This document shows, piece by piece, positions 237-17,767 of a DNA stretch of 17,767 nt. Location of the stretch: positions 1 to 17,767 of the forward strand of contig PJAB01001053.1 in NCBI GenBank assembly GCA_002887195.1, in the 5' to 3' direction. Under the pieces are notes generated by a model. The model had not been told where the DNA came from, made no database searches, and saw nothing but the letters and a program-made list of their open reading frames with translations. The position numbers and the translations under genes are program-made. The DNA is from Chrysochromulina parva (lineage: Eukaryota; Haptophyta; Prymnesiales; Chrysochromulinaceae). Each line of letters opens with the position of its first letter. Position 1 is the first letter of the stretch.

Positions 237-276
237 ATGAAGCGAAGGAGGAAGCAAGCGACGCCATCTCCCTCGC

Positions 277-319
<43 letters not shown>

Positions 320-1145
320 ACGCACGCTCGAGAAGGAGCACGGCGGCGGCGGCCGCAGGACGGGCTCGTTTTCGCCCCTCTACGACGAGGCCGTCGCACC
401 CCACACGCTCATTCTGGGCACGCAGCCGTCGGTGAAGTCAATTGGCGCAGGCTGGTATTTCGGCAGCGACACCAACAGCTTTTGGCACATTGTGGGCGAG
501 GCGCTGGAATCTTACCGGCCCGGGATGGGGTTCCGCCGCGGCTTTCACCAGAACCAAAGCCGCCCAAATGGCGACGTGGTTCCGGCTATTGCGAGATTCC
601 TCACACCAAACTTGCCGGCTGTTGACTATGCCGAAGCCACACGTCGTCTCACCGCAGCTGGCTTTGCAGTGTGGGACTTCATAGAGTCGAGCGTGCGGAA
701 GGGTTCGCTGGATTCGGACATCAAAGAAGAGGTCACCGCCGACATTGGCGGGTTTGTTGCCCGCCATCCTTCCATCGAGCGAATTGTCTTCGCCACCGGC
801 ATGGGCTCGGCAGTCAAATTTCGCAAGCACTTTGGCGAGTGGCTAGGGCGCGGTGCGTTCCGCTGCAGCGGTGCGTCTGCGCTGGACGTCTTTGCGAAGA
901 CGGTGACTTGTCCCGCCTTGCAGGGCGGCATCGAGCTTGTCATTCCGCCATCGGTGTCGCCCGCAATGGCGACCATGACCTTTGGCGAGAAGCGCGATGC
1001 GTGGCTCGACCTTGTCTTCAAGCGGAGCATGTCTGCAAGCCCCCTCGTGCACCCGCACCAGCAGAAGGGCACCACAACATCCAAGCGGAAGGCACCAGCC
1101 GCTGCCGCCACCACCGCTACATCGAAGAAGCGTGCGCGGCGCTGA
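237..1145 (+). CDS. DNA-deoxyinosine (hypoxanthine) glycosylase, UDG superfamily family 6-like
   Basis: This 302-residue protein matches the hypoxanthine-DNA glycosylase (HDG, family 6) branch of the uracil-DNA-glycosylase superfamily, which removes deaminated bases, chiefly hypoxanthine, to start base-excision repair. Visible motifs in order are: LILGTQPSVKS (58-68, motif 1), YFGSDTNSFW with N80 (74-83), WDFIESSVRKGSLDSDI (146-162, the family hallmark RxGSLDS), IERIVFATG (180-188), and IPPSVSPA (236-243), the counterpart of the family's LPSTSPA motif 2. Residues 15-28 are a poly-Gly tract from a GGC repeat, ahead of the domain that begins near residue 45. The tail (about 275-302) is Lys/Arg/Ala-rich with KRK and KKRARR, a plausible nuclear localisation signal. 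ATG 237 is the first in-frame Met after a stop at 84-86. No intron is needed. The family call is firm; exact substrate preference is inferred. Confidence 0.86.
279..320. repeat. GGC trinucleotide repeat (poly-Gly tract)
   Basis: Thirteen GGC codons followed by one GGA encode 14 consecutive Gly residues near the N-terminus of the glycosylase. The pure CGG-type run is likely to vary in length and lies outside the catalytic fold. Confidence 0.9.
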
Positions 1146-3807: not shown

Positions 3808-6800
3808 CTAGGCGGCCGGAGGCAGGCGGGCGGCGCTTTCGTCAATGAGTAGCTCGAGCTGCTGGAGCGGGTGGCGCACGATGAGGCGGCGCCGGCCTGC
3901 CGAGCAGTTGCACCGGCCCGAGCAGCTGTCGGTGTCGTCATCGTCAGCCATGGGCGCTCCGCCCATCATGCGCCCCACACGACGATTCGCCGTCGGCCCA
4001 CCCGCCTTTTGGCGCGCGCGGCCTGCCTGGCCCTCCTGGCCCGCGCCGCCCACGAAGACGCTCGCCGTGATCTGCGCGTGGCACGAGGTGCACGTCGTTG
4101 AGATCTTTCGGGTGCCCGCCGGCACGCGCGCCTTGAGCCGCTTGCCGCACTCGCTACAGGGAAAGCGCACCACTTGCAGCTCCGGCGCAGAAGCGGAGGG
4201 AGTCGGCGCGGTCGGCGCGGTCGGCGCGGCCGGTGCGGCCGGTGCGGCTGCGGGAGGGAGGACAGCGGGTGGCGGCGGGGCCGTGCCATCGTGCGGCGCC
4301 GTGGTGGGCGCGCCCGCTGGAGGCGGCGCGTGTGCCATGGGGGCATCGTCAGCGCCGTCTTGGGCAGCAGCGTCAGCGCCGTGGTGGGCAGCATCGTCAG
4401 CGCCATCACCGGGCGGCGAGGAGGGCGGCGAGGTTGGCGGGCTGACCAAGGGCGGCGCGGCGGGCGGCAGAGGCCATGCGGAGCCTCCGCCGAGTCCGCC
4501 GGCGCGCGCGCCCGCTGTGGAGAGGGCACGGCCCTCGGTGGCGGAAGCGACGCGGATGGCGCCCTCGGGGTCTTCATCGAGATGGATGTACGAGGCAGGG
4601 AGCGAGGAGTCGTCGTCGGCGTGCGTGTGCAGCGCGTGCTCGGGGCACAAGAAGGCGTCGTTCGCGCAGCCGCATTGCACGACCGAGAAATAGCACAGGT
4701 GGCGGCACACACGGCAGCGCCAGCGGAAAAAGTAGGCCGAGTCGTCCGCGCCATCCGACCAAGTATAGGCGAACGAGGGCTTGCCTTCGCCTTCGCCGGC
4801 CGGCGCGCCATCGAGGAGAGTGGGTTCGGGCGGCACGCGCACCCCGGCACGCCGGACAGCCTCTCGGGCGAGGCGCTCGGCGTGCAGCAGCCGACGCAGC
4901 TCGCTCACGAGGGCGCCTAGCTCGTGCGGGTGGGCATGCTGGGCGGCAGTGCACACGAGAGCCTCGTGCAGAAGGGTCGTGTCGCGCGTGGGCGGCGAGC
5001 GGTAGCGCTGCAGGCAAGCGGCACCCACGGGCAGCCAGTCGGCAAACGCGAAGTTGACCGATTCGGCCACGTTGAAGCCGACGTTGAAGCCCGAGTGGTA
5101 GGCGGCGGGCGAGGTGAACATGAAGGTGCCCGGCTCGGCGACGCACCGGTAGACGGGCACGCCAAAGGCACGAAGGACCGCGGGGGAGAAGATGCACGTC
5201 TTCCAGTAGTGCAGGTCCGGGTGTCGCTGGAAGAGCGCGGGGAAGATAGCATTCCACACCGTCTCCATCTCTTGCTTGTGCGAGGGCGGCACGCCGTACC
5301 ATACCTTGGGTTCGCCTGCGACGAGGTAGTTGGTCGCGTACAGGTGGTTGTCCTCCACGTGCCAGCAGAAAAAGGTGTTGCGCGAGCCCACGTACGTCAT
5401 CGGGTAGTTGACCCCAGGGATGAGGGGCGAGAAGCGCAGGAGCGAGGCACGCAGCAGCGAGTCCAAGATGCCCGAGCGCGTCTGCGTCGCGGTCACCTCA
5501 CCACGCAGCGAGTCCGCAGGCGGCATCGGCCCCTCATACGTCACGTCGGACGCGTAGAGCGCGCACGGCACCCCGCCCTCGCGCTCGATGAGCGCCTCGA
5601 ACGCGCGCACCGTCGCCGAGCACCCACTGCCGGCGCCCGCGCCGGCTGCGGCATCCTCAGCCGCACTCTCGAGCACATGCGAGCGCCGTTGGCTGCTTCG
5701 CTCATACATTGGGGTCAGGTCGGCCTCTTCCTCCTCGTCGGCGAGGATCTTGTAGTTCTTCTTCGAGATGGCGCGCGCCTTGCTCGAGAGCTCGCCCGAG
5801 CATGGGCCGAGGTGATAGCGGCTCTGATCGCATCCAGGCGTGTCGCACTGACCGAGCTTGCGCTTGCCGCCCGCTACCTTGTCGCTCGCGCTGTGTTGAG
5901 CTCCCATGTCGCTCGCGCCGCTCTCGAGGCGCTCGAGGGGGGGCGCGCACCCGCCGCTGCCGCCGGCCGCGGCAGACTGGGCTCGCGGTGGCAACGCATG
6001 CGTGCCGCTGGCCGCCCCGGCGGAAGCGGCAGAAGGCCCAGCCCTAGGCGCGGCGGTGGTCGCGGCGGTAGAGGGCCCAGCCCTAGACGCGGCGGTGGTC
6101 GCGGCGGTAGAGGGCCCAGCCCTAGACGCGGCGGTGGTCGCGGCGGCAGAGGGCCCAGCCCTAGGCGCGGCGGCAGAGGGCCCAGCCCTAGGCGCGGCGG
6201 CGGCAGAGGGCGCGGCGGCTCGCGCGACAGCAGGGGCCGCCGCGGTGTGTGCGGCGGCCTCAGTGGCATTGAGTGGGCGCAGGTTGGCATGCCGAAGCGC
6301 GAGGACTTTGGGCCAGCCGATGAGACGCACATTGTATCGCTTGCGCGCAGCGTCGACAGAGAGGACTGTGCCGCGTAGACCGTTGAGCTCCGGACGACTC
6401 TGTACGTCGTGCACCACGACGGCGCTCCCCTCGACGAACGCTGCCTCTGCGTAGGTGGGAGCGGCTGCAGCGGTGGCGGCAGCGGTGCCGGCGGCGGTGG
6501 CGGCGGCAGATGAGGCGGCGGCAACGGCGACGGCGGGCGGCGGTGGCGCCTCCGGCATCGGATGGTCGATCACATTGAGATCGGCGCCGGCATCGGCGGT
6601 GGCGGCGCCCTCGGCCACCGGCCCTTCGCTCGCCCCTGCCTCGGGTGCCTCTCCCTCGGGTGCCTCTCCCTCGGGCGGCGGCGACGAGGGCGGCGAGATC
6701 GGCGCTTCGCTCGACGGTGGGCGCACTGCGGGTGCAGCCGGCGCGGCCGGCGTGGTGGTCGGCACGGCGGCGGAAAGTGGCGCTGCCGCCATCGCCCCGG

Positions 6801-7941
6801 CCAGGGGAGCGGGCGCTGTGCCGGGCACTGGCGCTGCGGCTATAGACGAGGGCACAAACGGGATCTTGCCGCTCGCCCTGACGCCGGCGGCCGGGATGAA
6901 ACCAGGCGGTAGGCGCACGGCGCCACCGGGCGGTAGACGCACGGCGCCACCGGGCGGTAGACGCACGGCGCCACTGCCGAGGCTCTCGGGCGGCGCGGGC
7001 GCGGGTGGCGGGGGCGGGGGCGGCTGACACCTCCCAAGAGGACGAGCGAGCACGGGTGGCGCCTCGCGCATCTCCCAGGGCACCGCTGACAGCACCGTCG
7101 CCAATAGGCCGGTAGCGGCGGGGTGCGGGATGCCGGCGGCGGGCGGCGGCGGCTGCTGCTGGCTGGCGACGCGCTCCTGGTAGTGGCGCGCCTCCATGCG
7201 CAGCCGCGCCGCCTCGAGGCCGCTCACCTCGAGAGCCCCCACCCCCGCCTGCGTGGGTCGCTGCGCCATCAGCGCCCAAAAGCGCCGCTCGACCTCGGCG
7301 AGTGAACAGGGCTCGTCTGGCCAGGTGGCGGCCGAGAGGGCGCGGTACTCGTCGACGGTGAGGCGCGCATCGTCGCACTGTTCAAAGCCACGGTTGAAGA
7401 GCTGCAGCGGCTGCACGCGCGGCGCGAGCCTCGGCTCCGAGCCGTCCGCGGTCGGCGAGAGCGCGCGCACCACGTCCTCGACGCGCATTCTGCTCGTGAT
7501 CACGGAGCGCTCGGTGAAGCCCTTGGGCATGTGGCCCGACCAGGGATGCGGCGTCCAGCCCGGCGGTGGCACCACCTTGCACATCCCGTACGGCTCCATC
7601 TGCGGCATGATCGACTGGAAGTACCGGCCAGGCTCGCTAAACTCGGCAGCCGTCGGCCGGAAGACAGGGCACTCGGGCAGGTCGGTGGCCTCCTTGGCGA
7701 TGGCCCAGTGCCGGCAGTTCTGGCCGTAGCGCTCCAGCGTGCGCAGCCAGAGAGCCTCGTCCTCGTTGCAATTCGCCTCCTTGATTTCATGCTTCAGATG
7801 CTGGTGCACCTCGTTGATCGTGCGCAGCTTGCGGCCGCGGCTGCTCACAAAGTATGTGTCCTGGCGGCCGTTGCGCGCCTCGTCGCGGTGCACACGCCAG
7901 CCTTGCGGCGGGGCGCCGACGCCCGAATCGTCCGAGGGCAT
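3808..7941 (-). CDS. KDM5/plant-JMJ-like histone lysine demethylase with N-terminal MBD-like domain
   Basis: This 1377-residue nuclear protein is a predicted Fe(II)/2-oxoglutarate histone lysine demethylase. Domains in order: MBD-like (14-50: GW...G..D.Y...GRKLRT..EV), JmjN (91-134: CPVFRPT..EF...YGMCKV.PPPGW), the family linker with RGFEQ (184-188) and VERRFW (217-222), a low-complexity insert (about 240-775) holding an SH3/KOW-like module (500-556: SRPELNGLRGTV) and a C-x4-C-x5-H-x3-C knuckle (C699, C704, H710, C714), JmjC (about 830-970), a C5HC2-like zinc finger from C1076, and a C-terminal zinc ribbon (C1262, C1265, C1284, C1287). Fe ligands H861, E863 and H949 and the 2OG lysine K879 (GEPK) are present with KDM5 spacing, so activity is expected, probably on H3K4 by similarity. 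No PHD finger or ARID is visible. The reading frame is uninterrupted for 4.1 kb. It is transcribed divergently from the Sfi1-like gene. Confidence 0.9.
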   Translation of the reverse strand: MPSDDSGVGAPPQGWRVHRDEARNGRQDTYFVSSRGRKLRTINEVHQHLKHEIKEANCNEDEALWLRTLERYGQNCRHWAIAKEATDLPECPVFRPTAAEFSEPGRYFQSIMPQMEPYGMCKVVPPPGWTPHPWSGHMPKGFTERSVITSRMRVEDVVRALSPTADGSEPRLAPRVQPLQLFNRGFEQCDDARLTVDEYRALSAATWPDEPCSLAEVERRFWALMAQRPTQAGVGALEVSGLEAARLRMEARHYQERVASQQQPPPPAAGIPHPAATGLLATVLSAVPWEMREAPPVLARPLGRCQPPPPPPPAPAPPESLGSGAVRLPPGGAVRLPPGGAVRLPPGFIPAAGVRASGKIPFVPSSIAAAPVPGTAPAPLAGAMAAAPLSAAVPTTTPAAPAAPAVRPPSSEAPISPPSSPPPEGEAPEGEAPEAGASEGPVAEGAATADAGADLNVIDHPMPEAPPPPAVAVAAASSAAATAAGTAAATAAAAPTYAEAAFVEGSAVVVHDVQSRPELNGLRGTVLSVDAARKRYNVRLIGWPKVLALRHANLRPLNATEAAAHTAAAPAVARAAAPSAAAAPRAGPSAAAPRAGPSAAATTAASRAGPSTAATTAASRAGPSTAATTAAPRAGPSAASAGAASGTHALPPRAQSAAAGGSGGCAPPLERLESGASDMGAQHSASDKVAGGKRKLGQCDTPGCDQSRYHLGPCSGELSSKARAISKKNYKILADEEEEADLTPMYERSSQRRSHVLESAAEDAAAGAGAGSGCSATVRAFEALIEREGGVPCALYASDVTYEGPMPPADSLRGEVTATQTRSGILDSLLRASLLRFSPLIPGVNYPMTYVGSRNTFFCWHVEDNHLYATNYLVAGEPKVWYGVPPSHKQEMETVWNAIFPALFQRHPDLHYWKTCIFSPAVLRAFGVPVYRCVAEPGTFMFTSPAAYHSGFNVGFNVAESVNFAFADWLPVGAACLQRYRSPPTRDTTLLHEALVCTAAQHAHPHELGALVSELRRLLHAERLAREAVRRAGVRVPPEPTLLDGAPAGEGEGKPSFAYTWSDGADDSAYFFRWRCRVCRHLCYFSVVQCGCANDAFLCPEHALHTHADDDSSLPASYIHLDEDPEGAIRVASATEGRALSTAGARAGGLGGGSAWPLPPAAPPLVSPPTSPPSSPPGDGADDAAHHGADAAAQDGADDAPMAHAPPPAGAPTTAPHDGTAPPPPAVLPPAAAPAAPAAPTAPTAPTPSASAPELQVVRFPCSECGKRLKARVPAGTRKISTTCTSCHAQITASVFVGGAGQEGQAGRARQKAGGPTANRRVGRMMGGAPMADDDDTDSCSGRCNCSAGRRRLIVRHPLQQLELLIDESAARLPPAA
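6037..6210. repeat. 39-bp in-frame minisatellite in the JmjC gene
   Basis: The motif CCCAGCCCTAG recurs at 6037, 6076, 6115 and 6154 (exactly 39 bp apart) and again at 6181 (27 bp). On the minus strand each unit encodes about 13 residues of the form RAGPSTAATTAAS. It lies in the disordered insert of the demethylase, so length changes in steps of 13 residues would stay in frame. Confidence 0.88.
6904..6975. repeat. 24-bp in-frame tandem repeat (3 copies) in the JmjC gene
   Basis: Three near-identical 24-bp units (6904-6927, 6928-6951, 6952-6975) encode repeated GAVRLPPG on the minus strand, in the Pro/Ala-rich insert after the JmjN block. The second and third units are almost identical, which suggests recent amplification. 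Confidence 0.88.
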
Positions 7942-8387: not shown

Positions 8388-11300
8388 ATGGCGGTCTCGG
8401 CCTCCGCCAATCATGTCGCGGAGGTGCGTTCCTTCTTGCAGTCGCTGGGCGCGCCACCGCGCGTGCAGATACAAGCCACTCCACTAGCAGGGCCTGCAGC
8501 AGCGCCTGCCTCCGCTCCTTCCACCCTGCTGCCGACTCCTCTTCCGAAGCCGCCGCCGCGGCCTCGCGCGCACCTAGGAGCAGCAGCAGGAGCTGCTGCT
8601 GCTGCTGCGAGCTTATCGCCAGTCTTCGAGCATGGCGACGAGGACGAGAGTCAGCCGCGACTCTCGCCGCCCGTACCCAGCAGCACCCTCGCGCCACTGT
8701 CAGGTTCCTTGCCACCGCACCCCACGGAAGTTGCGCCGACGCCGCTGCCGCGACCCTCGCCACCGTTTGCACCATCACGAGCATCGCCTGCTGCAGAGCC
8801 ACCATATGCAACGGACGCCGCCATCAGCCACCGCCGCGATCTCAACGTCGGCATCCAAGGCCGCGCGAGTTGCGGCGGCAGCCGAGGAGGTGGCGGCCGT
8901 GGTGGCGGCAGCCGAGGTGTCAGCAGCCGAGGTGTCAGCTTCCGAGCCGAGAGCGGACGGACTACGGCGCAGCAGGACAAGACTACCAAGGTGGATCGCC
9001 GCGCGGCCGAGCAGCGCGCCCTCGCCCTGGCCGCGCGCAAGGAAGCCACGATCGCCGCGGCCGAGGCCGCAGGCAGGGAGCAGCGACTGGCATCTGCGGC
9101 GGCGTCGGCGGCGACGTCGGCGGCATCGGCGGCGGCAGCGGCGGCAACGGCGTGGGACGTGTCGGAGCTGGCAGCAACCCCTCCGCTGCCGCTGCCCGAT
9201 GACTGGCTCACCGTCCACCAGCTTCGTGCCGCGCGCGCGCACCTCGTGCGCAGCCTCACCGTTGGCCAACGGCAGCTACGAGAGTGCATCGGGCGTGCGC
9301 GGGAGCTGGGCGCAGCGGCGGAGGAGCAGCTGCGAGGCGGCGGCGTGGGCGAGGGAGTGAGCGGCGGTGCGTGGGAGGGGAGCGCCTTCAAATGGTCTCT
9401 CATCTCCACCCTGCGCGCCAAGTACCTCGTGCGCGCCGCGCTGCTCGCGCTCAGCTTGCATGCCGGCGCGCGTCGGCAGCGACGCGCTTTCGTGAGCCAG
9501 ATGGCGATGCCGCTGCTGCGTGAGCTGCTGCGAGCGGTATGGGAGGCGCTTGTGACGCTCGTGACGCCGCCAGAGCTTGTGCGCCGTGGCGAGCGCGCCG
9601 CCGCCGCTGCGCGCGTGCGCACTTCCCACAGAGCGCTGGGCTGGTGGGCTCAACATACGCGCTCGGAGACGCGCGCTCGGCGGCTGGCGGCGCGCTACTG
9701 GCGGCGGCTCTCGCTCGGCCACGCATGGGGGCGGCTGCTCGAGCGCATCACGGCGAGTGCCGAGTGGCAGCAGGCGACCCGTGCCGCACGGCAGCTCCAC
9801 GGTCGCGCCGTCCTGAGCGCGCACGTGCGTGCGTGGCGCGGGCTCGTCGCACGCCGCAAAAAGCTCGGCTCAAGTCTCGGGACTAGTCTGTGGGCGAGCC
9901 TCGGGCGAGGCTCGTCTGGCGGCGGCAGCGGCGGCAGCGGCGGCAGCGGCGGCGGCGGCGGCGGCGGCGGCCTCGGCAGACGAGCCTCGCTGGTGACGAG
10001 CCTCTTGCCTGTCAAACGCGTTGGCGCGCCCGCCGCGCCCGCCGCGCCCGGCAGCAGCGTCAGGCCCGTGGCGATCACGGCGGCGGCGGCGAGCGCCGCT
10101 GCCGCAATGATCGCAGCTGCAGCATCAACGGACGCGGCGCCGGCAGCGGAGCCGGAGCGTAGGGCTGCCAAGGCCATGAAGGGCGAGCAGATACCGGCCA
10201 CCTCAGCCAGCAGGCGTTCCGACGCCTCGATGGACGAGCAAGTTGTCAGCATACAAGCGGCGCATGCACCCAGCCCACCTCTCAAGGGAGGGGCGGGGCG
10301 CCGTGATGAGCACTTGCATGCGAGGCAGGGGGCGATCCAGCGTGCCTTGGCGTCGATGGACGAGGCCTCTCTCGGAGCATTCCTGGACGCGAGCGCGCTC
10401 AAGGTGCAAGCGTTTCAGCGCGGCCGGCAGTCACGCAAATTGAACGAGCGTCCCGCCGCCAAGGGCGGTGGAGGTGCTCACAATGCGGCCGAAGGCGGCG
10501 GGCTCTTCTTTGCGATGATGCCGATGCCACCTCGACCGGCGCGGCTAGCGCCCTCGGTCGCCCCCCCCCGCCCGCCCCCTCGCCCGCCCCGCTCGCTGCC
10601 CGCCTCACCCGCGGCCCGTGTGCGGCTCGAGGCGACGGACGCGCTCACGGCGGCGCTCGATGTGGCGGCGCCCGTGTCGGGTATCACTCTGCTGACTCGG
10701 GTGTGGCAGCGACCGCCCCCCGCGGCGCCCTACTTATCGGCCACGGTGCTGCCCCTCCGGCGGCGTGTGGTGGCATGGCAGTGCTGGCGCCAAGCCCTCG
10801 CGTGCCGTCGCGCGCACCGCGCCCTCGCCGCCATCGCTGCACATGCGATGAGCCGCCGCGTGCTCGCCGCGCTCCACGCGCACACATGCCACGTGATTGG
10901 CGCGCGCGCCGCCTTCGTCACCGTACTCGGGCGCGTCGCGGAACAGCGTCGGAGCTCGCGTGCATGGCTCGCGTGGCGTGCTGAGCACCGCAAGTGGCAT
11001 GCCTTCGCCGCCGAAGCGGCCAGCACCCAGTTTCGTCAGAACGCGCTCTCGGTGGCGATGGTGGCGCTGTGCGTGGCGGAGCGAGAAGGGCGCGCGCGTC
11101 GGCGCACGCTGAGCGGCGCGCGCCTTGCCCTCGCACGGCTTATGTGCCAGCGCGCGGTGGCAGTATGGTTCAGCTGGCGTTCGTGGGATCGCTCCCTGGC
11201 TGCAAAGGGGGCGGCGGCTGCGCAGGCTCGCGCGCATCATGAGCGAGCGAGGCGGCTCGCTCGCTGGCGGAACCGTTACGACGCGCGGTGCGTGATGCGC

Positions 11301-14209
11301 CGCGTGTTCAGCCTGTGTGCCACCTTCCACGCGCACGCGATCGCGTTGGGCGAGGGTGGCTTGCTCTGGCGTCTCGTGCGCCGCCTGTACGACGCGTGGA
11401 CGCTCTGCATGCATGAGGCACGCGCCGAGCGCCGGGTACGGATCGCCGAGCGGGCCGCAGACACACTCTGGCGCACGACGATCGGTACGCGCGTCCTCGG
11501 CTGCTGGCGCGCCCATGTGCGCGCGCGCGCCTTTCTACGCGCCACAATCACACGACGCACGCAGGCCGCCCTGCGCACGGGCCTCGCCGCCCTCGGCGCC
11601 CGGCCGGCCGCGCTGCGCACGTCCGTGGCGCTCGCGGCGCTCGCCGAGCGCCATCGTCGCCGGCACCCGCTCCGGCGCGGGCTCGAGGCGATGCAAGCAT
11701 GTCGGGACGTCGCGCGGGCGCGCCGGCTGAGTTGGGTACGTGCCCATCTCAGCGCGTGGCGTGAGCTGGTCAGCGCGCGCGACGCGACGGCCACTCGGCA
11801 CGCCGCGGTGCGCGGGCGACAACGGGCGCTGCGCCGGGCATGCGGCACGCTCCGGGTGCACGCGGCGGAGCGGAAGGCGGTGCAAGTGCTGAGTAGCTTT
11901 GGCCACGGCGCACGCGTTCGCGCGGCGCTCGAGGCGATAGTCGACCAGGTTGAGCGCTCCAAGGCGTTCGACGCGCTGTGGCAAGCGAGCCGCGGCCATA
12001 GTCGACGAGGCGCGCTGCGCCGAGTGGTGACGCGCTGGCGGCACGCGGTGTACTATGCGATGCTGCACTCGTATGCGGCGCCCGTACACGCCGCGTGCAC
12101 GGCGCTCGGTGGCGCATGGTCGCGATGGCGTGTCTCGTTCACCCACTGGCCTTGGCTGGCAGCACGCGAGGCGGCGGCGGCGCTCTACCTCGTACGGCTG
12201 CGCGGATGGTTTGGGTGGCTGCGATGGATGCGCCGCCGGCTGGCCGTGGTGCGGCGGGCGGAGGAGATGGTGGAGGCCGCCGCCGCCGAGGCCGCGGACG
12301 CCGAGGTGGCGGCGGCGCTGATGCCCCGTGTGCTTGGATACGACGGCGGTGAGGGCGGCGGTGAGGGCGGCGGCCAAGGCAGCGGCGAGGGCGCAGGCGA
12401 GGGGGCAGGCGAGGGGGCAGGCGAGCAGGAGGACGTGGAGCTCGCGAGACTGGAGCTCGAGTCTCTTCTCTCTCCCGACGACATCCGAGCACATGGGCCA
12501 ACAGATGCCGACCTTGCCGCCGGCCTGAGCTACCTCCTCGACCGTCGTCTGCCACCGCCGCCCACGACCCTCCATTCACGCCCCCCCACGGCCCTCCCCG
12601 CCTCAGCCGCCAACGACGCTGCCCCTGCCCCTTCCCACGCCGCCGCCGCCGCCGCCACCCATGGCAGCGCCCCTGGCACCTCGACCTCCGCACCCCCTGG
12701 CACCGCTGCCACCTCCCTTGGGACTACTGCCTCGGCCGGTGCTCGCTCACGCCCTGCGTCACGATCTGCGTCGCGCCCTTCCTCGCGCCCGTCGTCGCAA
12801 CCTCGGGCGGGCTGGCTGCCGCCGCGCCCGCTGCCTGTGTGGGATTCGTCAGAGCCACCCTCACGCCGCGCATCGTCCCCCGTCGACTCGCGCCCCCATT
12901 CTCGTGCGGGGGCGCCGCCTCATCTCCGCCCCACCTGGGATGATTCTCGCCCGCCCTCTCGCACGCCCTCTCGCCCGCCCTCTCGCCCGCCCTCGCGGGC
13001 CGCCGGCATCATCGCCGCCGCCGCCGCCGCTTTCGGCCCTCGCGCCGCCGTGCCCATGGTGGCCGTCACGCCCGTCGTGGCCGCAGCCGCGCCTGCCGCT
13101 CAAGTAGGCGCGCCTTGCGTTCAAGATGCCGCGTCCGGTGGCCTCCTCAGCACCGCGCCATTGCCGAGCACCGTGCACACTGGGTCCCTCATCGCACCTG
13201 AGTGCGCGGGAGGCAGCGGCGACCAGGGCGAGTTGGAGGGCTTTGACGAGGGTCATGACGAGGGCCACTACGAGACTAGCTACGAGACTGGCTACAAGAC
13301 CGGCTACGAGGCAGGCTACGAAGGCAACCGCGAGGGCGGCTACGAGGCCGGCTACGAGGCCGGCTACGAGGGCGGCTACGAGGCCGCCGGCGAGGCCGCC
13401 ATCGCCGCCGCCCCAACCGCTGCCCCGACCTTATCGCCAGCGCCAGCGCCTTTTCGCCCATCTACGGCGATGTCCCGAGCTCCACGTGCCCCCTCCGCTC
13501 CACCCCGCCTCATCCACCGGCCCTCCTCTCTTGCGCACTCCGCCTCGCTGCCGCCCGCCCCTCGCGCCGCCGCCCCTCGCCCCTCGGGCTCCTCGGGCTC
13601 ATGGCCGCCGCCACCCTCCACGGTGCGTGAGGCGGCGGCAGCGGTTGGAAGGCGGAGCCGAGGCGGGCGCAGCAGCCGCGGCAGCCGCGGCGCCGCCTCC
13701 CTCTCGCCGCCGCCACGCTCGCCGCCCTCTCCGCCCTCGCCACCCAAGGCAGCGCTCAAGGCGGTGCTCAAGAGCAGAGCATCTCCACTCCCCACAGCAT
13801 CTCCACTCCCCACAGCATCTCCACTCCCCACAGCATCTCCACTCCCCACAGCATCACCACTCCCCAAGCCGCCGCCAGCCAGATCCGCACAGCTAACTCA
13901 CGCCGCCGCAGCAAGTCCCACCGCCGTCGCCCTGCGCACGCCGCACCGCACCGCCTGTGGCGACTGCAGCGGCAGCCGCCGGAGTTGCAGCGGCGGCACG
14001 GTGAGCAGTGGCATGGCGTCTGTACCCTTCTCGCCTGCAGCCAACGCCTCGCGCGCCCACGCCGCCATCCTCACGGACCCGCCTGGCGCCTCTCCCGCTT
14101 CCGCCCCCTCCACCTCGCGCCACAGCTCCATGAGCAGCTGCGGTTGCCCCCCTCCTGCCACACCATCCAGCCGACCACCCCCCCACGCCCTCCAGCCGCG
14201 CTTCCTACC

Positions 14210-14263
<54 letters not shown>

Positions 14264-15959
14264 AGCGTCCGAGGCCGCCGTCGAGACCAAGGCCACCACT
14301 GCCATAAACAGCGGCGGAGGGGCAGCGCGCACCACACCACCTGCCCCTCTCAGCGCACCCCGCACCCTTCGCGTGTCGCTGCCCTCCGTGCTTCCCTTGC
14401 CCTTCGCCTCCCAAGCCGCCTCCTCATCGCCACCACCGCCGCCACTGCCGCCGCCGCCGCCGCCGCCGCCGCCGCCCTCGCTGCTGCCGTCGTCGTCGCC
14501 GCCACCGCCGCCCCCGCCACCGTGGCCACCACAACGATCCATCGCCACTCCGGCCGCCGCGGCAGACTCTCCCTTGACCAGTACGGCGCGAGGCCAGTGC
14601 TCGCCCCAGCCGCCTCTTTCCCACCCTCGCCCCGAGCAGCTAGCGCCCTCGCAGCACCCCACCTCGCAGCAATCCACCACGCAGCCTCGGACGCCGCCAG
14701 GCTGGACGCAGCCGGAGCTTCGCCCGGCGCCTCCGCCCCCGCCTGCGCCGATGCCCCCTCCTCCGCTCCAGCCTCGGCCACCGCCTTCGGCACTCGCGCC
14801 ACCACCTACGCCGCCACCCCGTTCACCCTTGCCCTTGCCGTCGCAGCCATTTCCACCGTTCCCCACCGAGGCTGCATGCCTGCAGCCTCCGCATGGCACC
14901 GGTGCCAAAGTTGCCATGGCCGGCACGTCCGCTTTTGGCGCCATCACCGCCGCCGGCGCCGCCGCCGCGCCCGCCTCACTGAGCGAGATGCAGCAGTGGC
15001 GGCAGGAAGAGCAAGGCAATCCCCATCTGGGGCCGCCCGTGGCTGAGAGCGCGCCCGCGCCCATCGCCTTCGCCTCCTTCGCGCCCGCGCCCGAAGCGCG
15101 CGCGCGCTCACGACGAGAGGGACGTGTGCTCACAACGGCGGATCGCACGCTCCTCGCCGCCTCGCTGCTCGCGTGGCACCGGCTCGCACGCACAGGCTCC
15201 GCCCTTCAAGCCGCCTCGCACGTGACTGTCCTTCCTGCCCCCGCCACTGCGTCACGTCCTGTTGTCGCCGAGGCATCCGCGCTGGCGGCAAGAGCGATGG
15301 CGGCCGAAGGCACAGAGTGGGCAGCAGCTGAGGTGTCGTCGTCGTCGTCGTCGTCGTCGTCATCGTCAGCGGAGGCGGCGGCGGAGGTGGAGACGTCGAT
15401 GGCGTTGGAGGCGACGGCGTCGGAGGCACCAAAGGCGTCGGTGGCGCCGGGGGCGTCTGCGGCGTCGGTGGCGCCAGTAAAGCACTCAGAAGGCATGCGG
15501 CCGTCTCCGGTGGCCAATGTATTGGAGATGGCCCTCCGCCGTCCGTATTGGCAGGCGGTCGAGGTGCTACGCCACCGCCGCTACCGCCGCTGCTTTGGTG
15601 CGTGGGTTGGGGAAATGGCCCTCCAACGCCGGCACTTTCAGGCAACTGAACTACTCCGCCACCGCCGACGCCGTCGCTGCTTCAGTGCGTGGGTGCGTGC
15701 CACAGCAGCTCGCGCGCGTGTGGGAGAGTGGGCAGTGGCTCCGGTGCCATCCGCGACCGCCCAGCCGCGCCCGCGCCCGGGGGCGACCCACATCTACTGC
15801 CGGCGGCCGAGAGAGCCTGTGGTGCGCTCGACTTTCCGGACTATCGCCCCCGTGGCCGGGCGCGACCCGATCGCCCTCATCCGCTCCACTCTGCTCAACT
15901 GTGAGTGGTTGCACGTTGTAGACGGCCTTGCAGATAGAGGCTTGCGAGGTACTAGGTAA
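8388..15959 (+). CDS. Sfi1-like centrin-binding-repeat protein, giant and largely disordered
   Basis: This 2523-residue protein resembles Sfi1-type proteins, whose long helix carries Trp-containing repeats that each bind a centrin at centrosomes or basal bodies. Around 410-1300 I count about twelve helical segments with the repeat core hhxxWRxx (WW418-419, AWQCWR near 797, AWLAWR, VWFSWR, LARWR, LGCWR, LSAWR, VTRWR, WSRWR, WFGWLRW near 1274). An IQ motif (VQAFQRGRQSRK, 673-684) is a likely calmodulin or centrin site. Residues 200-270 are an Ala/Glu/Arg-rich coiled-coil candidate. About 1300-2250 is low complexity: GEGAG repeats, RPxSRPxS, GYEAGYEG, TASPLP, poly-Ala and poly-Pro. Three more Trp repeats follow (W2263, W2406, W2435), two of them a 29-residue tandem pair. 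ATG 8388 follows an in-frame TAG at 8364. The last 20 codons may be intron read-through. Confidence 0.83.
8579..8603. repeat. Perfect 11-bp inverted repeat (CAG/CTG hairpin)
   Basis: AGCAGCAGCAG (8579-8589) and CTGCTGCTGCT (8593-8603) flank a 3-nt loop GAG, so either strand can fold into an 11-bp hairpin. It is inside the coding sequence of the Sfi1-like protein, where it encodes part of an Ala-rich run. CAG/CTG hairpins of this kind promote length instability. Confidence 0.8.
9917..9971. repeat. GGC/AGC repeat encoding a Gly/Ser linker
   Basis: An interrupted GGC run encodes Gly-Ser then poly-Gly in the Sfi1-like protein, between the first Trp-repeat cluster (about 420-490) and the IQ region. 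It probably acts as a flexible linker. Confidence 0.8.
12342..12425. repeat. GEG / GEGAG codon repeat
   Basis: Short in-frame repeats of GAGGGCGGCGGT and GAGGGGGCAGGC type encode a Gly/Glu/Ala tract directly after the main Trp-repeat array of the Sfi1-like protein, marking its boundary with the disordered region. Confidence 0.8.
13236..13400. repeat. 12-bp-period repeat encoding GYEAGYEG-type tetrapeptides
   Basis: About a dozen tetrapeptide-like units (EGHD, ETSY, ETGY, KTGY, EAGY, EGGY) are encoded by TACGAGGCCGGC-type 12-mers. It is an acidic, Tyr-rich island in an otherwise Pro/Ser/Ala-rich region of the Sfi1-like protein. Regularly spaced Tyr residues suggest a low-complexity interaction segment; function unknown. 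Confidence 0.82.
13779..13868. repeat. 18-bp tandem minisatellite (5 copies)
   Basis: GCATCTCCACTCCCCACA is repeated four times exactly, with a fifth slightly diverged copy (13851-13868). It encodes repeated ASPLPT at about residues 1798-1827 of the Sfi1-like protein, giving a ladder of Ser-Pro sites. Near-perfect identity implies recent expansion and probable length polymorphism. Confidence 0.92.
14211..14248. repeat. GCC repeat encoding poly-Ala
   Basis: An almost pure GCC codon run gives about twelve consecutive Ala residues in the disordered part of the Sfi1-like protein. Confidence 0.8.
14432..14480. repeat. CCG repeat encoding poly-Pro
   Basis: CCG/CCA codons give PPPPPLPPPPPPPPPP in the disordered part of the Sfi1-like protein. 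The surrounding region to about 14830 stays Pro-rich. It resembles a formin FH1 segment, but no FH2 domain follows, so it is simply a potential profilin/SH3/WW ligand region. Confidence 0.8.
15336..15368. repeat. TCG repeat encoding eleven Ser
   Basis: Eight TCG codons followed by TCA TCG TCA, in frame, encode poly-Ser just before the last pair of Trp repeats of the Sfi1-like protein. It is a plain trinucleotide microsatellite. Confidence 0.88.
15525..15698 (+). repeat. 29-residue tandem pair of Sfi1-like repeats
   Basis: Residues 2380-2408 and 2409-2437 align directly: both begin EMAL, contain LRHRR, and end CF(G/S)AWV with Trp 2406 and 2435. The two DNA copies differ at many bases while the protein pattern is kept, which argues for selection on the repeat and supports the reading frame this close to the 3' end. 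Confidence 0.8.
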
Positions 15960-16443: not shown

Positions 16444-17376
16444 TTACCACTTCCGCCCATCTCTTGGCGTCGACCACTGGCCGCCAGACTCCTGCCTGTG
16501 CCCGCCCCCTCGACCTCCACCTCCGCCGCCTTTGCCACCTGCCCCTCCGCGCGGCCAAGCGGAGCCTTCCGCGCTCCCGGCGAGCTCGGCAAGGCTGCGC
16601 CCCCCGCCGCCGCCACCCCGCGACCAAGACGGTCCGTCACTCCCGCCGCCCTTGCCCCCGGTCGAGGGCACGCTCGGGGAGTTGGCATCGGGTCTGGCTT
16701 CCGCAGCGAAGCGAGCGTTTCCTTCGGATGGCTTCGCAGCGGCGACGATGGCAGCAGCCGAGGCGGCAATTTCGGCGATGGCAGCGGCCCTCGTATCCGG
16801 TGCCGACCCGCAACGGCTGAATCGCTCACCACTGAGCCTCTCGCCACTGAGCCGCTCACTACGGCCTCCGCCGCCTCTAGCACCATCACGTCCACCACCG
16901 GCTTCGCCTCCACCACTACCGCGGCGGGGACCATCGCCACCTTCGGTACCGCCACGTCGGCCACTGCCGCCGCCGCCGTCCCGCGACCACGACTGCCCAT
17001 GACTACCGCCGCCCTTGCCCCCGCTCGAGGCTCTGGCATCATCCCAGGAGGGTCTGGCTTCCGCAGCGAAGCGAGCGTTTCCTTCGGACGGCTTCGCAGC
17101 GGCGACGATGGCAGCAGCCGAGGCGGCAATTTCGGCGATGGCAGCGGCCCTCGTATCCGGTGCCGAACCACCACGGCTGAATCGCTCACCACTGAGCCTC
17201 TCGTCACTGATCCGCTCACTACGGCCTCCGCCGCCTCTAGCACCATCACGTCCACCACCGGCTTCGCCTCCGCTACTACCGCGGCGGGGACCATCGCCAC
17301 CTTCGGTACCGCCACGTCGGCCGTCGCCTCCGTTGTCGCAACCGCCTGCGCCGCCGCCGCCGCCTCCGCCGGCGCA

Positions 17377-17408
<32 letters not shown>

Positions 17409-17767
17409 GTGTCTGCTGGCTGCTCTCAAAGGCGTGCTCTGCCTCGAGCCGCTGCTTACGCAGGTGGTCGGCCTGTGTCGTCCACACGTGCGCGAGCGAT
17501 TCGCGCAGCTCCGTGTGCAGCGACGCCACCTCGGCGCTCCACTCTGACTGATGCCACGCGTCCCATGCGCACACACCGCCGCCGCCACCCGTCTTCTCAC
17601 CCACCTCTTCCACGGCCGCATCCGCCACGGGCGTCTCCGAGAGGAACCGCACGGCAGCGGCGGCGGCGGCCGTCTCCAAGCCCGCGTACCCGCCCAGCCA
17701 CACGTACATAGGAGTGCGCCCCACCGCAAACGTGGGCGTCACGCGCACGCTCGCAAAGGCTGGCCGG
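16444..17767 (-). CDS. Partial protein with AP2/ERF-like half-domain and Gly/Arg-rich repeats (5' end outside the window)
   Basis: The frame is open from the right edge to a TAA at 16444-16446, about 440 codons, so the N-terminus is missing. The first visible residues (FASVRVTPTFAVGRTPMYVWLGGYAGLETAAAAAAVRFL) resemble the second half of an AP2/ERF DNA-binding domain, whose core is YLGGYxxxExAAxAYD; the usual AYD is not kept. Next comes an amphipathic, charged helix (17410-17568, WHQSEWSAEVASLHTELRESL...). The remainder is Gly/Arg/Ser-rich with a duplicated 120-residue unit containing AAAIAEIAASAAAIVAAAKP. I prefer this frame over the overlapping minus frame (16260-17729) because of its balanced N-terminal composition; substitutions between the repeat copies only weakly support it. 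The stop overlaps a GTAAGG splice-donor match, so the gene may continue further left. Confidence 0.55.
16618..17340. repeat. Tandem duplication of about 360 bp
   Basis: A core of 273 bp (16690-16962) recurs at 17050-17322, offset exactly 360 bp, with 8 mismatches by direct comparison (about 97% identity). More diverged homology extends left from 16618 and 16981 (offset 363, so one 3-bp indel). The period is a multiple of three, so all frames stay open. The unit encodes the Ala-rich helix and the GERFSR / GGGGRSER segments of the partial gene. Confidence 0.95.
17336..17408. repeat. GCC-rich repeat
   Basis: An interrupted GCC run encodes Gly-rich sequence (GGGGGGSGGCAGGGGG type) on the minus strand in the partial gene and poly-Ala in the plus frames. 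It separates the charged helix from the duplicated units. Confidence 0.7.

What the first reader, a model, noticed from the sequence alone, without database searches (positions are those of the whole stretch)
3808..7941. MBD-like domain fused to a KDM5/JMJ-type histone demethylase
Residues 14-50 fit the methyl-CpG-binding fold pattern (GW at 14-15, G25, D28-x-Y30, G36, LRT at 39-41, EV at 44-45), directly before a clear JmjN and a complete JmjC. Animal KDM5 proteins use ARID and PHD modules and plant JMJ14-type proteins use FY-rich domains; I know of no described MBD plus JmjN/JmjC demethylase. Relative to MeCP2, D28 and R40 would match D121 and R133, but the R111 position falls on A22 (R23 is next) and the loop is four residues shorter, so methyl-CpG binding is uncertain. 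If it binds, the protein would couple DNA methylation reading to histone demethylation in one chain.
Basis: partly seen in the sequence, partly recalled or inferred. Interest (0 to 1): 0.78.

Follow-up and report, generated by a model that had tools for sequence, protein, structure and literature searches.

The report
MBD-fold domain on haptophyte KDM5-like demethylase
A marine alga, probably a haptophyte, carries a histone demethylase gene with a DNA-methylation-reader-type fold attached at its front end; relatives share that front end, but whether it still reads methylated DNA is unsettled.

Summary
Window 3808-7941(-) is one uninterrupted 1377-codon frame with clear JmjN and JmjC. The MBD match at residues 12-54 is below Pfam's 21-bit cut-off in the full protein (17.0) and above it for residues 1-87 alone (22.4). 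A profile of seven family N-termini gives 33 PDB matches, 31 of them MBD/TAM (best E 2e-4, only two under 0.001). Foldseek's first 35 ranks for the predicted fold are all MBD/TAM (E 0.04-0.76). The front end (MBD-like + JmjN) recurs in divergent relatives, one a Prymnesium parvum transcriptome protein. The catalytic half is KDM5/JMJ14-like with iron ligands kept; Pfam lists no ARID, PHD or FYR domain. Methyl-CpG reading is doubtful here: loop L1 is short, the first arginine finger is displaced, and contact residues drift in the family, although P0130 keeps all five. Most likely it is an H3K4 demethylase tethered to chromatin by an MBD fold that need not be methyl-specific. The paper searches listed no such architecture, in a partial library and with few papers opened.

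The parts
3808..7941 (-). Whole gene frame: MBD-fold + JmjN + JmjC + C5HC2 + zinc-ribbon-like protein, 1377 aa, no stop or intron interrupting the frame
   Evidence: near-identical P0002 with the same chain
7771..7914 (-). MBD-fold domain, residues about 10-57 (Pfam stretch 12-54)
7717..7764 (-). Predicted second helix, residues 60-75 (within NEDEALWLRTLERYG), conserved bridge between MBD fold and JmjN
   Evidence: alignment A4, models
7567..7668 (-). JmjN, residues 92-125
   Evidence: Pfam PF02375; Foldseek matches to KDM5B, 50% identity over 44 columns
7156..7551 (-). Conserved region after JmjN, residues 131-262 (APRVQPLQLFN, ERRFWALMA); no Pfam family listed there
6262..6450 (-). Small module, residues 498-560 (KOW/Tudor-like by eye only; no Pfam match)
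   Evidence: sequence; similar stretch seen by eye in P0007 and P0008; Pfam none
5800..5868 (-). Cys/His motif CDTPGCDQSRYHLGPC within residues 692-714
   Evidence: position; no Pfam match; related CSTPGC/CATPGC...FHFGPC by eye in P0007 and P0008 (the pattern tried was one letter off and missed them)
5050..5397 (-). JmjC catalytic domain, residues 849-964; Fe ligands H861, E863, H949; 2-oxoglutarate residues K879, N871
4930..5040 (-). KDM5 C-terminal helical domain-like, residues 968-1004 (below cut-off)
   Evidence: Pfam PF21323, 14.0 and 17.0 bits, cut-off 27.1
4624..4716 (-). C5HC2 zinc finger, residues 1076-1106
   Evidence: Pfam PF02928, 22.3 bits, cut-off 22
4078..4158 (-). C-terminal zinc-ribbon-like motif, residues 1262-1288 (below Pfam cut-off)
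   Evidence: Pfam PF14803, 18.0 and 23.7 bits, cut-off 25.6

Best explanation
The gene encodes a KDM5/JMJ14-type histone demethylase, probably for H3K4, in which Pfam lists no ARID, PHD or FYR domain and which instead carries an N-terminal MBD-fold module joined by a conserved helix to JmjN. The MBD module most likely serves as a chromatin tether, through DNA backbone or nucleosome contact or a protein partner, that places the demethylase at its targets so that local H3K4 methylation is removed and transcription repressed. In this protein the module is probably not a strict methyl-CpG reader. Shown: the continuous frame, the MBD fold by profile and model, JmjN/JmjC, intact Fe and main 2-oxoglutarate residues, and conservation of the MBD-JmjN front end. 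Inferred: H3K4 specificity, the tether role, repression, and absence of strict methyl specificity.
For: MBD fold. Catalytic class: best PDB sequence matches are JMJ14 (2e-52) and KDM5B (3e-49), ahead of KDM4 proteins (8e-38 or weaker). Fe ligands H861/E863/H949 and K879/N871/W881 are kept. Front end present in P0125-P0130 and P0132, including a P. parvum transcriptome protein. Contact residues drift while G14, W15, G25, G36, E44, V45, H46, L49 and K50 are invariant in the seven rows of A5. Trp-to-Asp spacing is 13, against 16-19 in four other MBDs of this genome and 17 in the MBD2 and Arabidopsis MBD6 segments shown; human MBD5/6, with a nine-residue L1 deletion, do not bind methylated DNA (PMC2917364, passages). 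Precedent for an MBD protein serving an H3K4 demethylase independently of cytosine methylation: MBD8-LDL2 (PMC13157976, abstract and passages).
Against: D28, Y30, R40 and E44 are all present here, R23 lies one residue from the RF1 place, one alignment puts R19 in it, and P0130 has the complete five-residue set, so methyl-CpG reading is not excluded. JMJ13, solved with an H3K27me3 peptide, also scores ahead of KDM4 (5.9e-44), so the mark removed is not fixed by rank alone. One 2-oxoglutarate-proximal position is Ala (A869) where KDM5B and JMJ14 have Ser, so turnover is not certain. MBD8 works without its MBD, so such a domain can be dispensable. I saw no functional data for these proteins.
Confidence: 0.6

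Rival explanations
1. The MBD is a true methyl-CpG reader, so that one chain reads 5-methylcytosine and removes H3K4 methylation at methylated DNA. R23 or R19 would do the work of the first arginine finger in a shortened loop.
For: Four of the five contact residues are kept in the window protein and all five in P0130; alignment A3 sets R19 in the RF1 column. The genome holds six cytosine-C5 methylase-like matches and other MBD proteins, one (L002) with a complete contact set.
Against: By the GW-anchored count there is no Arg at the RF1 place (A22), and the loop is four residues short. P0127 lacks RF1, the D and the Y; P0128 lacks the Y and has K for RF1 and H for RF2; P0129 lacks RF1 and the Y; P0132 lacks the Y and has C for RF2. 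CpG observed/expected is 1.13 in the window and 0.97-1.23 in 17 own-genome loci, one of which (L007) overlaps the window: no sign of heavy CpG methylation there.
Confidence: 0.3
2. The MBD fold is a structural or protein-partner module (stability, complex assembly) with no DNA contact, as for human MBD5/6 in the BAP1 complex or SETDB2's MBD, which was crystallised with a protein partner. This overlaps with the best explanation, of which it is the no-DNA version.
For: DNA-contact residues drift while the helix face E44-V45-H46-xx-L49-K50 is invariant and the following NEDEALW helix nearly so. MBD5/6-BAP1 (PMC9523997, search listing). The SETDB2-C11orf46 structure is among the fold matches.
Against: Residues 33-40 of the window protein (SSRGRKLR) remain basic, compatible with a DNA backbone role; no partner is known.
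Confidence: 0.3
3. The MBD match is a chance resemblance or a gene-model artefact.
For: Sub-threshold Pfam score in the full-length protein and not listed in the genome-wide MBD search; P0127 and P0129 give no Pfam MBD match and only 5.6 bits against the canonical profile; Foldseek gave no match with E <= 0.001.
Against: Shuffle control 0 of 20,000; PDB profile hits 31 of 33 MBD/TAM; P0128 passes the Pfam cut-off at 26.1 bits; the chain is continuous in two proteins; a transcriptome protein of P. parvum has the aligned region.
Confidence: 0.03

Closest known systems
KDM5/JARID1 H3K4 demethylases (animals, fungi; KDM5-like copies in this genome, L005 and L011)
   Same: JmjN + JmjC + C5HC2; best PDB sequence matches include KDM5B
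   Different: No ARID or PHD listed; MBD fold in front. The same genome separately encodes a JmjN-ARID-PHD frame (L005) and a short JmjN match beside an ARID frame (L011)
Plant JMJ14/JMJ16/JMJ18 H3K4 demethylases
   Same: Best single PDB match is JMJ14; the named proteins among the 120 listed of 236 relatives are mostly plant, many called JMJ16 or JMJ18
   Different: No FYRN/FYRC listed; MBD-fold N-terminus, long Ala/Pro linkers and a zinc-ribbon-like tail
Canonical MBD proteins (MeCP2, MBD1-4, Arabidopsis MBD5/6)
   Same: MBD fold; D, Y, RF2 and the RF2-bracing E present
   Different: Loop L1 about four residues shorter and no Arg at the GW-anchored RF1 place
Human MBD5/MBD6 (non-methyl-binding MBDs)
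   Same: N-terminal MBD with a shortened loop L1 (PMC2917364, passages)
   Different: Deletion there is nine residues; no JmjC (recalled)
KDM2A/KDM2B (CxxC zinc finger + JmjC)
   Same: CpG-sensing DNA-binding domain and JmjC demethylase in one chain (PMC3685328, passages)
   Different: Reads unmethylated CpG by a zinc finger; H3K36 class
IBM1/DMM-1-type zf-4CXXC_R1 + JmjC proteins
   Same: JmjC fused to a domain linked with DNA-methylation control, in plants, fungi and others (PMC10538959, passages)
   Different: Different zinc-finger domain; IBM1 class predicted to act on H3K9
MBD8-LDL2 (Arabidopsis)
   Same: MBD protein working with an H3K4 demethylase, without methyl-specific binding (PMC13157976, abstract and passages)
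   Different: Two separate proteins; LDL2 is LSD1-type (recalled), and the MBD is dispensable there
SETDB1/2 and IDM1 (MBD plus histone-modifying enzyme; recalled, except the SETDB2 MBD structure)
   Same: MBD fold fused to a histone-modifying enzyme
   Different: Methyltransferase or acetyltransferase, not JmjC demethylase

Membership tests
MBD (methyl-CpG-binding domain fold, PF01429) | Profile match over the curated cut-off | tested here: inconclusive
   22.4 bits (cut-off 21) for residues 1-87, but 17.0 in the full protein and 20.0 in residues 1-262; not listed in the genome-wide search; relative P0128 26.1
MBD (methyl-CpG-binding domain fold, PF01429) | Beta-sheet plus helix fold resembling solved MBDs | tested here: met
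Methyl-CpG-reading MBD | Arginine fingers RF1 and RF2, D121, Y123, E137 equivalents and a full loop L1 | tested here: not met
   D, Y, RF2 and E met; RF1 place is Ala with Arg next to it and the loop is four residues short; alignment A3 would put R19 at RF1. Residue roles from PMC8811898 (passages)
Methyl-CpG-reading MBD | Preferential binding of methylated CpG DNA | not testable with these tools
   needs a binding assay
KDM5/JARID1-JMJ14 demethylase class | JmjN + JmjC with KDM5-type sequence and C5HC2 finger | tested here: met
   (C5HC2 just over cut-off)
KDM5/JARID1-JMJ14 demethylase class | Fe(II) and 2-oxoglutarate binding residues | tested here: met
   H861, E863, H949, K879, N871, W881 kept; A869 replaces the usual Ser (residue roles recalled)
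KDM5/JARID1 sensu stricto (animal/fungal) | ARID and PHD domains between JmjN and JmjC | tested here: not met
   no ARID or PHD listed with the limit at E 10 (HMMER's filters drop most above about 0.1)
Plant JMJ14 group | FYRN/FYRC after the C5HC2 finger | tested here: not met
   no FYRN or FYRC listed with the limit at E 10 (same caveat)
H3K4 demethylase activity | Removes H3K4me2/3 | not testable with these tools
   needs an enzyme assay

The most novel reading that the evidence does not exclude
Haptophytes evolved a single-chain reader-eraser in which an MBD recognises methylated CpG and the fused KDM5-type JmjC strips H3K4 methylation there. P0130 keeps the full methyl-CpG contact set, and the window protein is a variant with a shifted arginine finger.
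Probability: 0.3. Interest if true: 0.8.

Novelty: new variant of a known kind. Interest (0 to 1): 0.5.

Why it matters
KDM5-type demethylases are usually aimed by ARID and PHD domains or, in plants, FY-rich domains (recalled). An MBD fold in that role would be a new way of addressing an H3K4 eraser in a major group of marine algae. It also supplies a natural comparison: relatives with and without the methyl-CpG contact residues would show whether MBD domains on demethylases act by reading DNA methylation or in another way, a question raised independently by the Arabidopsis MBD8-LDL2 work.

Tried and rejected
Chance match: rejected. Clr2_transil was the only other family on the 87-residue fragment (17.5 bits, cut-off 27); DUF7028 was weak in P0128 (12.9 bits, cut-off 27); neither competes with MBD.

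N-terminal codons outside the gene: no ATG, GTG or TTG upstream in the open frame; relatives P0129, P0130 and P0132 begin within 20 residues of the same GW; P0129 is a transcriptome protein. RNA data for this exact species were not available.

MBD-JmjN is not a repeated combination in this genome as far as searched: the N-terminal query (166 aa) matched only the window gene over the MBD part; the other 5 of 6 hits cover the JmjN part. Four other MBD places exist; on the frames scanned, L001 pairs MBD with PHD, L003 with CW and CXXC, L004 with DDT, and L002 has MBD alone; none of these four frames showed JmjN or JmjC at E <= 0.01.

Profile comparison with only two near-identical window copies was weak (probability 42%); with seven rows it rose to 93.9%. 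Rows left out of alignment A5: P0126 (identical to the window in that stretch) and P0131, P0133, P0134 (their models lack it). P0131 and P0133 may have the MBD in an upstream exon; that could not be checked.

Full-length chains carrying MBD + JmjN + JmjC were seen only in P0001 and P0002, which are near-identical. P0006-P0008 carry the JmjC half (60-63% identity) and P0127-P0130 and P0132 the MBD-JmjN half; I could not join the halves in any second species.

An attempt to place the organism by 18S rRNA failed: the genome search with RF01960 did not complete, and a count of JmjC genes with PF02373. Haptophyte origin rests on the pattern of relatives only.

The motif expression missed seven of the listed proteins (P0009, P0010, P0012, P0016, P0078, P0112, P0123) and L008, which were therefore not aligned; the comparison with KDM5B and JMJ14 rests on the alignments. 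The GPC pattern was one letter off and found nothing in P0006-P0008.

Full report
Observation. The frame 3808-7941(-) encodes 1377 residues without an internal stop. Pfam gives JmjC 849-964 (2.8e-34), JmjN 92-125 (1e-12), zf-C5HC2 1076-1106 (22.3 bits, cut-off 22), a sub-threshold KDM5 C-terminal helical match, a sub-threshold C-terminal zinc ribbon, and MBD 12-54 at 17.0 bits (cut-off 21). ARID, PHD and FYRN/FYRC are not listed with the limit at E 10. For residues 1-87 alone the MBD score is 22.4 bits, E 9.2e-5; for residues 1-262 it is 20.0. A search of the whole genome with the MBD family at E <= 0.001 listed four other places and not this one. The Pfam evidence alone therefore straddles the cut-off.

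Relatives. P0002, an independent near-identical protein, has the same chain. Between the two, the MBD segment (46 of 47 identical) is as conserved as the region with JmjC, 815-1010 (193 of 196), while the Ala/Pro-rich linkers show 83-91% identity with gaps. A search with residues 1-262 returned 10 proteins at E <= 1. Seven carry the stretch in front of JmjN (P0125-P0130, P0132); three do not (P0131, P0133, P0134). P0128 is above the Pfam MBD cut-off; P0125, P0126, P0130 and P0132 match below it; P0127 and P0129 have no Pfam MBD match and are assigned by alignment. P0129 carries an MMETSP header with taxid 97485, Prymnesium parvum, a haptophyte; that MMETSP is a transcriptome project is recalled. 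So the MBD-like stretch and JmjN share a transcript-derived protein in a relative, and the window most likely comes from a haptophyte. P0006-P0008 share the JmjC half at 60-63%, and P0007 and P0008, by eye, the module before it. I could not show the complete chain in a second, clearly different species.

Catalytic half. By PDB sequence search the closest are JMJ14 (2.2e-52) and KDM5B (2.9e-49); a rice protein (Os05g0196500; entry 4igo, titled JMJ703, H3K4; 1.4e-46) and JMJ13 (5.9e-44, solved with an H3K27me3 peptide) follow, then KDM4 (8e-38 and weaker). Fe ligands H861, E863 and H949, and K879, N871 and W881, are kept; A869 replaces a Ser (residue roles recalled). H3K4 specificity is inferred from class.

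Does it read methyl-CpG? MeCP2 R111 (RF1), D121, Y123, R133 (RF2) and E137 make or brace the contacts (PMC8811898, passages). Counting from the invariant GW, the window has A22 at RF1 with R23 next, then D28, Y30, R40 and E44; an alternative alignment puts R19 in the RF1 column. Trp-to-Asp spacing is 13 against 16-19 in the four other MBDs of this genome. Across seven rows of the family (window and P0125 near-identical), RF1 is Arg in 2 of 7 (P0130, P0132), D in 6 of 7, Y in 3 of 7, RF2 Arg in 5 of 7 and E in 7 of 7. P0130 alone has all five. Fold positions G14, W15, G25, G36, E44, V45, H46, L49 and K50 are invariant. Human MBD5/6, with loop L1 deleted by nine residues, do not bind methylated DNA (PMC2917364, passages). 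The genome has six C5-methylase-like matches; the one compared with the PDB (L012) is closest to M.HhaI. CpG observed/expected is 1.13 in the window and 0.97-1.23 in 17 own-genome loci, one of which overlaps the window: a small, gene-biased sample. Hence: the fold is kept, the methyl-reading set is not consistently kept, and reading is possible but not favoured.

Other MBD and JmjN genes. On the frames scanned, the genome also encodes MBD with PHD (L001), MBD alone (L002), MBD with CW and CXXC (L003) and MBD with DDT (L004); and separate KDM5-like loci, L005 (JmjN, ARID and PHD in one frame) and L011 (a partial JmjN match in a short frame beside an ARID frame). The window gene is thus one of several JmjN lineages, and its lack of ARID is not because the organism lacks KDM5-like genes.

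Known comparisons. KDM2 joins a CpG-reading CxxC finger to JmjC (PMC3685328, passages); IBM1/DMM-1-type proteins join zf-4CXXC_R1 to JmjC (PMC10538959, passages); diatoms show other JmjC fusions (SET, MBT, CHROMO; PMC3145265, passages); MBD8 partners LDL2 in trans without methyl specificity and with a dispensable MBD (PMC13157976, abstract and passages). A demethylase family survey of 2008 has no occurrence of 'MBD' in its main text (PMC2579438, find). Of ten paper searches, eight bore on an MBD-JmjC protein and two on MBD residues and MBD5/6; no title or abstract start in the lists described one. Searches found no paper; two searches listed 20 of 112 and 15 of 51. I opened seven papers in part only, the library lacks most subscription papers, and absence from print is not established.

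Verdict. A real domain architecture, MBD fold plus KDM5/JMJ14-like demethylase, with its front end shared by haptophyte-type relatives. Best reading: an H3K4 eraser with an MBD-fold chromatin tether. The methyl-reading version remains open at about 0.3.

Noticed in passing
window 237-1145 (+): Gene for a DNA-deoxyinosine (hypoxanthine) glycosylase, NCBIfam TIGR04274, 86.2 bits over a cut-off of 80, in a eukaryotic contig; Pfam listed no family.
   Followed up: partly
window 8388-15959 (+): 2523-codon open frame, head-to-head with the demethylase gene with about 450 bases between the predicted starts; Ala/Pro-rich, with scattered Trp-rich helical-looking repeats (Sfi1-like by eye only), no Pfam match.
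   Followed up: no
window 16444-17766 (-): Gly-rich open frame with a long internally duplicated stretch (KPSEGNARFAAEARP occurs twice); no Pfam match over cut-off.
   Followed up: no
L003:1-2124(-): Own-genome protein with MBD, CW and CXXC zinc finger in one frame: two CpG-type reader domains and a CW finger together.
   Followed up: no
L015 and L016 (own genome): C5-methylase-like matches in or beside Cys/His-rich, PHD-like protein sequence (by eye).
   Followed up: no
P0131 and P0133: Models start just after the MBD stretch, hinting at an intron at the MBD boundary in relatives while the window gene has it in one frame.
   Followed up: no
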